A stretch of DNA of 64,000 nt from Bacteroidales bacterium (GTDB lineage: Bacteria; Bacteroidota; Bacteroidia; Bacteroidales; Marinilabiliaceae): contig JAKSLF010000003.1 of assembly GCA_024401355.1 (NCBI GenBank), forward strand, positions 1 through 64,000. Reading direction: 5' to 3'. How positions within the stretch are numbered: the stretch's first letter is position 1; each line of letters starts with the position of its first letter. Below the pieces are notes generated by a model that was not told the origin of the DNA, ran no database searches, and saw only the letters and a list, made by a program, of their open reading frames with translations. Of this stretch, positions 38,681 to 41,502 are shown one piece after another. The position numbers were made by a program, and so were the translations under genes.

Positions 38681-39193
38681 ATGAAAAAGAAACTACTATT
38701 GTTGCTCCTGATGTGTGCGGTGCATGTTGGGGCTATGGCGGATGAGGTTCCGGGCGTGATCGTTGAGTACATTGACGAGAATAGTGACTCGTATGTTCAG
38801 GCGATTAGTGCCATTGGGCGTATTGAGTTCAAGGGTGGTAATGCGACAATCGTCTTCAAGGATGCCGAGGCAGGTGCGGAAGAGCTTGGCGCCATTTCGG
38901 GCATCAAGAAAATCTCCTTCGGGCCAGTCAGCGAAAGCGACATCACCAAAGACGACGACACACCAACCTCTGTCGCAGCAGAGCGCAAAGTGAGCATTAG
39001 TGCGTATCCAAATCCGACGGCTGACCATGTGCATATCAGCGGCATGGAGGATGGTCAGCAGGTGCGTATGTTCACTTCTGACGGTCGTCTGACATACGTC
39101 GGACGGGAGTCGGACATAGACCTTTCGGGTATGCCATCGGGTGTTTACCTGTTGCAGGTGGGCAAAGAGGTCATCAAGGTGATTAAGAAATAA
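38681..39193 (+). CDS. secreted protein with type IX secretion C-terminal sorting domain
   Basis: The 170-residue product has a signal peptide (LLLLLLMCAVHVGAMA), a short mid-region and a C-terminal domain with SISAYPNPTADHVHISG, then VRMFTSDGRLTYVG and SGMPSGVYLLQVGKEVIKV, which is the T9SS type A pattern. It would be exported by the type IX system and anchored at the cell surface. The passenger part before the sorting domain is only about 80 residues, so it may be a small adaptor. It precedes the variable lectin-like gene, separated by the palindrome cluster. Confidence 0.82.
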   Translation: MKKKLLLLLLMCAVHVGAMADEVPGVIVEYIDENSDSYVQAISAIGRIEFKGGNATIVFKDAEAGAEELGAISGIKKISFGPVSESDITKDDDTPTSVAAERKVSISAYPNPTADHVHISGMEDGQQVRMFTSDGRLTYVGRESDIDLSGMPSGVYLLQVGKEVIKVIKK

Positions 39194-39366: not shown

Positions 39367-41502
39367 ATGAAGAAGATTATTCTTTCGGCTCTCGCCTTGA
39401 TGGGTGTGGGGGCAATGATGCCAGCTGAGGTCAGCGCGCAGTTTCGCGTTGTGAAAGATGGCAAGGCAATTCTCGTCATGGAGGATGAAGTGCCGGACTA
39501 TGTTGATTTTGAAGTTGGAGCACAAGAGGATGGTCACCTGACATTGGAGGAGCTGATGTCTATGACAACGGTTAGAGTTGATAAGACGGCAGATGGGAAG
39601 AATGGTAATGTGCTTACTTGTTCTACTACAGCTCCGGTAAGTGTGAAGTGGAGTATTCCTGGTTATTTTGCTTTGAATAGTAATCATTTTACAAGAAAGA
39701 TGGATGTGGGTGAGTATAAGGTCATACTCGATGCCTTATGTGCTGACGGTACAAAGCTCAAGGCAGAATATACAGTAAAGTGTGATGTTGTTACTAATCC
39801 AAGGAAGACAGTAGAGTGGATCTATGGTGGCCCTGACAGGCCGGATCAAAAGCCATTCTCTCCTGGGGCATGGGATGCTGCTGAGATGCGTTTCAGCGAT
39901 ATCAATGGCAAGCGCTTCCCTTTCCTTTCGGATGAAGTGTATTTTGATAATATGGTTCTTGTCTTCGATATATCGGATGCCACCGACGATTGTGAAGGTC
40001 GTGTGATGAACGGCTGGTGGTCGGCACGCTATGATGATGATCAAGACGTTAAGTTTACTAATGGTTTGTGGAGGCTTAATATAACAGATGCCATTGCCTA
40101 TGATTGTGCGCGTGGCAATGGTGGCGGAGGCAGGGATCTTGACCTCATGATAACTTCGGGTAGTTGTACTATCAATTCGGTCCGTTGTGAGGAAAATGGC
40201 ATTATGCACGATGCTCCAACAGTAGGTGAAGCAGTAGACTTGGGGCTTTCTGTTAAGTGGTCGAGCATTAATGTAGGCGCAACGTCTCCGGAACAGGCAG
40301 GTGACTATTTTGCGTGGGGCGAAACAAAGACCAAGAAGAACTGCACTTGGAATACATACAAATATGGAAACAGCTGGAATATCAATAAATATACGATAGA
40401 TGACGGTCAGAGTGGTTCTATTTGGTACGATAAGGAATACGGTGAATTTATAGGTGATGGAAGAACTGTTCTTGGTAGTTCGGATGATGCGGCATCAGTC
40501 AACTGGGGAGGTGATTGGGAGATGCCAACAATAAATGACTGGATGGAACTGAAAAATTATTGTTCATACGAGTGGACTGATAACTATAATAATACAAAGA
40601 TTTCTGGATATATTATAACGAGCAAGGCGGAAGGAAACCATAATTCAATCTTCCTTCCTGCCGCAGGCTTTCGCAGCTACGACTACCTCTACTACGAGGG
40701 CTCCGGCTACTACTGGTCGTCGTCGCTCTACGAGTACAGCTCGGACAGCGGCCGTGACCTGGACTTCGGCTCGGGCGCCTTCGGCCCTTGGAGCAGCAAC
40801 TACCGTTGCAACGGTCAGTCGGTTCGCCCAGTGTGCCCTTCCGCAGGATATACCAATGGTCGTGTGGCCGTGGACCTTGGCCTGCCAAGTGGCAAGCTGT
40901 GGGCTACATGCAACGTAGGTGCCGATGCTCCAGAAAGCTATGGCGACTATTTCGCGTGGGGTGAGACTGAGAGTAAGAGTTACTATGACTGGAGCACATA
41001 CAAGCACATGCAGAGTGGAAAATCGGACTGGCATTATATAACAAAGTACCAACGTGAGGATAAGACTCAATGGAAAACTTGGTATGATGAGAGTGGAGAG
41101 TTTGTTGGTGACAATAAAACCACTTTGGAAGCATCTGACGACGTAGCGACAGCAACATGGGGCAAAGAGTGGAGGATGCCTACAGTTGAGGAGTGGAAAG
41201 AACTTGACGAGAATACAACCAAAGAGTGGACCAACGATTATTTCGGAACAGGTGTCAGTGGATATATCCTTACAAGCACAAAGCCTGGATATGAAAATGC
41301 ATATATCTTCCTTCCAGCAGCTGGTAGACGAGACGACGGCGGCCTCGACGACGAGGGCACGCGCGGTTACTACTGGTCGTCGTCGCTCAGCGAGTACTAC
41401 TCGAGCAGCGGCTGTTACCTGTACTTCTACTCGGGCGACTTCGACCCTTGGTACAACGGCCGTCACTGCGGTCAGTCGGTTCGCCCTGTGTGCACTAAAT
41501 AA
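39367..41502 (+). CDS. secreted protein with two C-type-lectin-like repeats carrying putative DGR variable regions
   Basis: The 711-residue product has a signal peptide (ALALMGVGAMMPAEVSA), an N-terminal part of about 280 residues with no family I recognise, and two tandem repeats of the Fibrobacter succinogenes major paralogous (FGE/C-type-lectin-like) kind. Each repeat has VDLGL, NVGA, GDYFAWGET, a WRMPT-like (WEMPT/WRMPT) turn, FLPAAG, YYWSSSL and GQSVRPVC. The second ends two residues before the C-terminus. Within each, the segment between FLPAAG and GQSVRPVC differs sharply between the two repeats at Tyr/Asp/Ser/Gly/Asn/His/Cys/Arg positions. Such folds serve as hypervariable ligand binders in diversity-generating retroelements. 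The protein lacks a T9SS tail; a surface or secreted binding role is inferred. Confidence 0.85.
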   Translation: MKKIILSALALMGVGAMMPAEVSAQFRVVKDGKAILVMEDEVPDYVDFEVGAQEDGHLTLEELMSMTTVRVDKTADGKNGNVLTCSTTAPVSVKWSIPGYFALNSNHFTRKMDVGEYKVILDALCADGTKLKAEYTVKCDVVTNPRKTVEWIYGGPDRPDQKPFSPGAWDAAEMRFSDINGKRFPFLSDEVYFDNMVLVFDISDATDDCEGRVMNGWWSARYDDDQDVKFTNGLWRLNITDAIAYDCARGNGGGGRDLDLMITSGSCTINSVRCEENGIMHDAPTVGEAVDLGLSVKWSSINVGATSPEQAGDYFAWGETKTKKNCTWNTYKYGNSWNINKYTIDDGQSGSIWYDKEYGEFIGDGRTVLGSSDDAASVNWGGDWEMPTINDWMELKNYCSYEWTDNYNNTKISGYIITSKAEGNHNSIFLPAAGFRSYDYLYYEGSGYYWSSSLYEYSSDSGRDLDFGSGAFGPWSSNYRCNGQSVRPVCPSAGYTNGRVAVDLGLPSGKLWATCNVGADAPESYGDYFAWGETESKSYYDWSTYKHMQSGKSDWHYITKYQREDKTQWKTWYDESGEFVGDNKTTLEASDDVATATWGKEWRMPTVEEWKELDENTTKEWTNDYFGTGVSGYILTSTKPGYENAYIFLPAAGRRDDGGLDDEGTRGYYWSSSLSEYYSSSGCYLYFYSGDFDPWYNGRHCGQSVRPVCTK
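40675..40836 (+). other. putative DGR variable region 1
   Basis: The 162 bases (residues 437-490) have 102 G+C by hand count, far more than the surrounding gene. The variable codons TAC, GAC, AGC, GGC, GCC, AAC and CGT are all one or two substitutions from AAC or AAT. The frame codons (TGG TCG TCG TCG CTC, CTG, TTC, TCG GGC, CCT TGG) match region 2. Confidence 0.65.
41332..41493 (+). other. putative DGR variable region 2
   Basis: The 162 bases (residues 656-709) are of the same length as region 1 with compensating one-codon gaps. After the shared TGG codon, about 14 codons differ from region 1 and all differ only at positions 1 and 2, with the third base unchanged. GGTCAGTCGGTTCGCCC closes both regions. 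It sits at the C-terminus, the usual place for a DGR target. Confidence 0.65.

What the first reader, a model, noticed from the sequence alone, without database searches (positions are those of the whole stretch)
40675..41493. Two tandem segments with the signature of diversity-generating-retroelement variable regions in one gene
The ends of the two lectin-like repeats (40675-40836 and 41332-41493, both 162 nt) keep the same constant codons almost base for base, such as TGGTCGTCGTCGCTC and GGTCAGTCGGTTCGCCC, while the codons in between differ. After the shared Trp, about 14 codons differ; all the changes are at codon positions 1 and 2, with the third base (C or T) unchanged. The residues are Tyr, Asp, Ser, Gly, Ala, Asn, His, Cys and Arg, all reachable from AAC/AAT by changing adenines. 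The first region is about 63% G+C (hand count 102 of 162), while the neighbouring sequence is not. This is what reverse-transcriptase-driven adenine mutagenesis of a template repeat leaves. Two variable regions in one polypeptide would be unusual, giving two separate hypervariable faces. No reverse transcriptase or template is in the window, so they may be trans targets or frozen copies.
Basis: partly seen in the sequence, partly recalled or inferred. Interest (0 to 1): 0.9.

Follow-up and report, generated by a model that had tools for sequence, protein, structure and literature searches.

The report
Two hypermutable lectin regions, one gene
A gut Bacteroidales gene for a secreted lectin-like protein carries two tandem stretches bearing the fingerprint of diversity-generating retroelements, which rewrite chosen codons; the template was not found, and only the tail of such a rewriting enzyme's gene is present in this genome assembly.

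Summary
Both 162-nt segments exist (63.0% and 63.6% G+C; 42-47% around them). After the shared Trp 14 codons differ: 21 changes at positions 1-2, one at position 3, in the last Pro codon. Third-base divergence between the two domains is 92/138 codons in the scaffold, 3/52 in the segments (p=5.1e-15).

The diversity-generating retroelement (DGR) reading is well supported. Genomes of the same genus hold DGRs (reverse transcriptase RT, AAC-rich template, target). Adjacent variable repeats (VRs) differ from their templates at 24/52, 24/52 and 25/54 adenines but 0/131, 1/131 and 2/132 other bases. The window's own genome contains the last 100 residues of such an RT, cut by a contig end.

Not shown: a template matching the window's VRs (none found) and present activity. 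Double-VR genes recur in four species of the genus, the window's included, and in another family, there without a match to this RT profile.

Tandem VRs and trans targets are already published, so this is a new member of a known kind.

The parts
39367..41502 (+). Target gene, 711 aa: N-terminal leader-like part and two tandem Lcl_C/FISUMP-like domains
   Evidence: ORF; weak Lcl_C match E=0.00016 and Fib_succ_major match E=4.9e-5, both below curated cut-offs; leader judged by eye
40651..40833 (+).
41308..41490 (+). VR2: FLPAAG...SVRPV segment of domain 2
40228..40650 (+). Scaffold of domain 1 (not hypervariable)
40867..41307 (+). Scaffold of domain 2 (not hypervariable)
38681..39193 (+). Partner gene, 170 aa, with type IX secretion sorting tail; homologues lie directly before VR genes in other loci
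   Evidence: Por_Secre_tail above cut-off; tblastn hits in 6 of 23 loci tested

Best explanation
The two segments are variable repeats (VRs) of a diversity-generating retroelement. In a DGR a reverse transcriptase copies an AAC-rich template RNA, misreading adenines, and the mutated cDNA replaces the end of a lectin-like domain. The window holds a remote (trans) target: a secreted protein with two tandem VR domains next to a type IX-secretion partner, one of several VR-bearing genes scattered in this genome. Shown: the VR signature; DGRs in the same genus with homologous targets and linked templates; the 3' end of a DGR-type RT gene in the window's own genome at a contig end. Inferred: that this RT or a sister served the window's VRs; that the template is in the unassembled part or has been lost since; that the variable faces bind ligands outside the cell.
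For: Third bases 92/138 against 3/52 diverged between the two domains. Linked template-VR pairs in the genus: A mismatches 24/52, 24/52, 25/54 against 0/131, 1/131, 2/132 at other bases; remote targets in the same genome G011 25/54 and 27/54 against 5/132 and 4/132. DGR-type RTs with IGNLTSQLFSN and YVDD. Own-genome RT tail: 50 of 88 aligned residues identical to the G010:C33 RT. Own-genome VRs C34a and C34c fit the template of G011:C10 (27/54 A against 12/132; 28/54 against 9/132). First-base spectrum at variable codons as in 7 proven template-VR pairs (p=0.75). Orthologues hypervariable only in the segment.
Against: No template of the window's VR type found: the best of eight templates leaves 32/129 and 37/130 non-adenine mismatches. 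The own RT is a 100-aa tail without catalytic motifs; NCBIfam gives it no family, PHROGs a weak RT match (1.1e-5). The second-base spectrum differs from proven pairs (p=0.008). One-codon shifts between the two VRs are not what a single template would give. G011 (97% complete) has window-type VRs without such a template; G088 (99%) has them without a match to the RT profile. The fold could not be confirmed.
Confidence: 0.9

Rival explanations
1. Frozen or orphan targets. The VRs were made by a DGR, but template and RT for this VR type have been lost, or never came along with the gene; the double-VR gene now spreads by horizontal transfer and ordinary recombination.
For: No template of this type in any genome searched. 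G088, of another family and 99% complete, carries a double-VR gene with scaffold 131/147 identical to G011 but no match to the DGR RT profile. G011:C25 holds a 48-residue RT tail remnant.
Against: Between species the VR frame is far better kept than the scaffold (third bases 2/53 against 91/146 for window domain 2 and G012 domain 2), which long-frozen copies would not show. The own genome does hold part of a DGR RT. Assemblies are incomplete (own 85%, G012 86%, G008 74%).
Confidence: 0.3
2. No retroelement: diversifying selection and gene conversion among paralogous lectin-like domains produce the pattern.
For: The genome has many paralogous stretches (20 matches, the window's own two among them).
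Against: Changes fall on positions 1-2 while third bases stay; linked AAC-rich templates explain homologous targets at adenines only. Selection on the protein would not spare third bases.
Confidence: 0.03

Closest known systems
DGRs with DUF1566-type target proteins (Yan et al. 2019, PMC6642488; section 13 read, other passages seen)
   Same: Lectin-like DUF1566 (Pfam Lcl_C, equivalence recalled) targets with C-terminal VRs; several VRs served by one template; 31 of 271 multi-VR DGRs have VRs in one ORF
   Different: No template found for the window's VR type; Lcl_C match of the window protein is below the curated cut-off
Thiohalocapsa PB-PSB1 DGR 4 and 5 (PMC10907252; passages) and Marichromatium purpuratum three-VR ORF (PMC3521204; passages)
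   Same: One target gene with tandem VR-bearing lectin-like domains; remote targets rewritten in trans
   Different: There the targets carry vWA domains of a conflict system; here the gene sits beside a type IX-secretion partner in a gut Bacteroidales genome, with two VRs
   Same: Homologous target domain; order target gene, accessory ORF, template, RT; partner gene before the target in G010:C33
   Different: Single-VR adjacent targets; their template differs from the window's VRs at many constant codons

Membership tests
DGR variable repeat | Variation confined to codons that are AAC/AAT in a template, i.e. positions 1-2, third base kept | tested here: met
   by comparison among VRs, without the template
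DGR variable repeat | A template repeat in the genome matching the VR at non-adenine bases | tested here: not met
   None in the 85% complete assembly; best template from relatives leaves 32/129 mismatches. The claim is therefore 'VR of DGR origin', not 'complete DGR'
DGR variable repeat | A DGR-clade reverse transcriptase in the genome | tested here: inconclusive
   Only the last 100 aa, at a contig end, closest in C-terminal alignment to DGR RTs of the genus; catalytic motifs off the contig
DGR variable repeat | Mutagenic homing, or A-specific variation among cells of one population | not testable with these tools
   No reads and no further strains of this species at hand
DGR loci of the same genus (the comparison set) | RT with SQ-type motif, linked AAC-rich template, VR differing at adenines only | tested here: met
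   G010:C33, G011:C27, G011:C10; G002:C28 has RT and template, its own VR was not among those compared
C-type-lectin-like target domain (Lcl_C / FISUMP) | Sequence family match and fold | tested here: inconclusive
   Lcl_C and Fib_succ_major matches below cut-off; 6 of 11 aligned relatives match Lcl_C; model pLDDT 58, pTM 0.61, no fold match at E<=0.001

The most novel reading that the evidence does not exclude
The double-VR gene with its secreted partner is a horizontally moving receptor module that travels without a DGR of its own and is rewritten in trans by whatever compatible reverse transcriptase and template its host holds; in hosts without one it persists as an already diversified, frozen receptor.
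Probability: 0.2. Interest if true: 0.65.

Novelty: new member of a known kind. Interest (0 to 1): 0.5.

Why it matters
It is a clear case in gut Bacteroidales of a secreted protein with two variable lectin-like segments, apart from its mutagenesis machinery and shared across species and at least one other family. Closing one such genome would show whether one template feeds many remote tandem targets, so it makes trans action of DGRs directly testable. The finding itself is a good instance of known biology rather than a new system.

Tried and rejected
Own-genome RVT_1 match on C69: not a DGR RT by eye (IPQGSEILN in place of the SQ motif; 554-aa ORF beside a helicase-like gene). RT at G012:C195, where I hoped for the template: PQGAPTSP motif, no AAC-rich repeat in the locus. 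Template by similarity: window VR against own genome, genus (15 genomes), family (71) and an order sample (393) gave no template of this type; only part of the candidates of several genomes was scored (e.g. 11 of 40, 2 of 12), so a template there could have been missed. Viral contigs: no match for the two window domains and no relative of the RT tail; four viral contigs hold related DGRs with another template type. Order sample with the RT tail: 2 of 393 genomes, the own one included. Structure: model weak, no fold match; the fold test says nothing for or against. Solved structures for the domain family: nothing at E below 0.1.

Rows left out and circular steps. The 13-VR set leaves out G008_C1_1 and G008_C40_2 (too diverged) and G088's two (found later). 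The 22 variable columns were chosen by eye, so the 265 of 281 third-base C and the Fisher value are descriptive; the fair tests are, which use all aligned codons. In one search one of eight listed pairs (own C34a) was skipped because its alignment has a gap.

Full report
What was claimed and what is there. The window gene 39367-41502 codes for 711 residues with two tandem domains weakly related to Lcl_C and FISUMP domains, below the curated cut-offs. Each ends in a segment running FLPAAG...YYWSSSL...SVRPV (40651-40833 and 41308-41490). After the Trp 14 codons differ, with 21 changes at positions 1 and 2 and one at position 3, in the last Pro codon. The equal lengths hide two compensating one-codon shifts.

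Is it more than chance? Over all aligned codons the two domains have diverged at 92 of 138 scaffold third bases but at 3 of 52 third bases in the segments (p=5.1e-15), while positions 1-2 show 103 and 31 changes. The same holds between species: window domain 2 against G012 domain 2, 91 of 146 against 2 of 53 third bases; third-base divergence was lower in the segment in each of the nine pairs computed. In five pairs of second domains whose scaffolds are 87-89% identical (G088, G012 and G011 copies) the segments differ at 35-45% of residues, with 29-37 changes at positions 1-2 and 3-5 at position 3. For G088_2 and G011_4, for instance, 13 and 34 changes fall in 147 scaffold codons and 29 and 5 in 54 segment codons. 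So the frame of the segments is kept while chosen codons vary, which ordinary divergence or selection on the protein does not give. Third-base differences among 13 VRs of this type are fewest in the middle (0.089 and 0.098) and more frequent at both ends (0.27-0.28).

The retroelements. RVT_1 matches occur in 7 of 15 genomes of the genus. Those in G002:C28, G010:C33, G011:C27 and G011:C10 are of DGR type (IGNLTSQLFSN, YVDD), and beside each lies an AAC-rich template whose translation reads like the target domain end with Asn at the variable places. For 32 VRs against eight templates, the adjacent VRs differ at 24/52 (G010:C33), 24/52 (G011:C27) and 25/54 (G011:C10) adenines but only at 0/131, 1/131 and 2/132 other bases. 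Remote targets exist in the same genome: G011:C43 and C21 differ from the C10 template at 25/54 and 27/54 adenines against 5/132 and 4/132 other bases. In G010:C33 and G011:C27 the order is target gene, 185-aa accessory ORF, template, RT. In the genus the accessory ORF was found in 3 of 15 genomes, G002, G010 and G011, the three with these RTs. Relatives were found in 7 of the 10 Bacteroidales records brought in by the RT (not in L107, L110, L130), in 4 of 4 viral contigs and in none of the other 17 records, L113-L129. It matches MutS domain I only weakly (PF01624, E=0.053); PF01624 is given as the Pfam of the known DGR accessory protein MSL in PMC10053308 (passage seen).

The window's own genome. 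The assembly is 85% complete, in 69 contigs. The G011:C27 RT found the last 100 residues of a related RT at C22:34639-34938, where the contig (34940 bases) ends; a profile of seven DGR RTs found the same place and no other at E<=10. In local alignments 50 of 88 residues are identical to the G010:C33 RT, 48 of 90 to G002:C28, 43 of 87 to G011:C27 and 29 of 60 to G011:C10. The catalytic motifs lie in the missing part. The contig also codes for what look by eye like GroEL and cysteine synthase, so the element is probably chromosomal. Whatever lies upstream of the RT, where templates and accessory ORFs lie in the relatives, is off the contig. The genome has other VR-like genes: C56 with two, C34 with three, C52 and C12 with one each. 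C34a and C34c fit the template of G011:C10 (27/54 A against 12/132 others; 28/54 against 9/132), C34b less well (29/54 against 34/129), C56a and C12 poorly (27/131 and 30/130 non-adenine mismatches).

The unsolved point. The window's VRs belong to another type: against eight templates the best fit leaves 32/129 and 37/130 non-adenine mismatches. By inspection of translations, VRs of this type occur in the own genome, G008, G011 and G012 (4 of 71 family genomes; 5 of 71 had a DNA match at E<=1e-6, that of G004 being short and of another type) and in G088 of another family (4 of 393 genomes matched, the own one and G088 with this type). No template of this type was seen in any of them, though not all candidates were scored. 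G011 is 97% and G088 99% complete; G088 has no match to the RT profile at E<=1e-5. G011:C25 carries a 48-residue tail of a further RT. Against the frozen-copy reading stand the third-base data: long-frozen VRs would have diverged like the scaffolds. Against full activity stand the missing template and the one-codon shifts. I hold rewriting by a template that is missing from, or was lately lost by, these genomes to be likelier than long-frozen copies, without proof.

Mutation spectrum. At 151 AAY codons of seven template-VR pairs the first base is now T49 A45 G42 C15 and the second A98 G33 T19 C1. At 22 variable columns of 13 window-type VRs the counts are A90 T89 G82 C20 and A169 G92 T15 C5. 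The first-base spectra do not differ (p=0.75), the second-base ones do (p=0.008).

The module. The gene before the window's target (38681-39193) has a type IX secretion sorting tail. Homologues were found in 6 of 23 loci tested, seven hits in all: directly before VR genes in own C56 and C12, both G011:C46 genes, G088 and the DGR locus G010:C33, and about 1.6 kb before one in G012:C150. Double-VR ORFs with the two YWS motifs 219-223 residues apart are found in own C56, both G011:C46 genes, G008:C1, G008:C40, G012:C10 and G088, behind different N-terminal parts; in some of these one of the two VRs is of another or a diverged type (C56a, G008_C1_1, G008_C40_2). That suggests shuffling of a receptor unit; secretion and binding are inferred.

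What is known. Multiple VRs are common in DGRs, and VRs sharing one ORF are reported: 31 of 271 multi-VR DGRs (PMC6642488, section 13 read), three FGE-sulfatase paralogues in one ORF of Marichromatium (PMC3521204, passages), three tandem lectin-like domains in Thiohalocapsa, with trans rewriting of remote targets (PMC10907252, passages). DUF1566 is called the most common Pfam domain of DGR targets (PMC6642488, passages). A search of the held library for DGR with type IX secretion listed one review on rumen viruses (listing only); DGR with the FISUMP name gave none; DGR with Prevotella and surface listed 15 of 17 papers (listing only). So the kind is known; the secreted tandem target with its partner gene and its spread without a template are details that I did not see described in these searches.

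Names. The window's genome is of the same genus and is not named. The best solved relative of the G011:C27 RT is chain 8ub7_A, 'Reverse transcriptase' (2.7e-36), which I recall to be the Bordetella phage DGR enzyme.

Noticed in passing
window 38681-39193: Partner gene with type IX secretion tail before the VR gene; homologues directly before VR genes in own C56 and C12, G011:C46 (two), G088 and G010:C33.
   Followed up: partly
L085 4962-7388 (own genome C34): 809-aa ORF with three VR-like domains of the SSTP type, two of them (first and third) fitting the template of G011:C10 at non-adenine bases.
   Followed up: partly
L180 (G011:C25 30595-30738): 48-residue tail of a further DGR-type RT beside a REP-associated-transposase-like ORF (named by eye), perhaps a decayed DGR.
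   Followed up: no
L104 833-1390: 185-aa ORF between target and template in several Bacteroidales DGRs; weak MutS domain I match, perhaps the accessory protein MSL.
   Followed up: partly
L001 1075-2739 (own genome C69): 554-aa reverse transcriptase of another kind beside a helicase-like ORF, resembling defence reverse transcriptases by eye; not tested.
   Followed up: no
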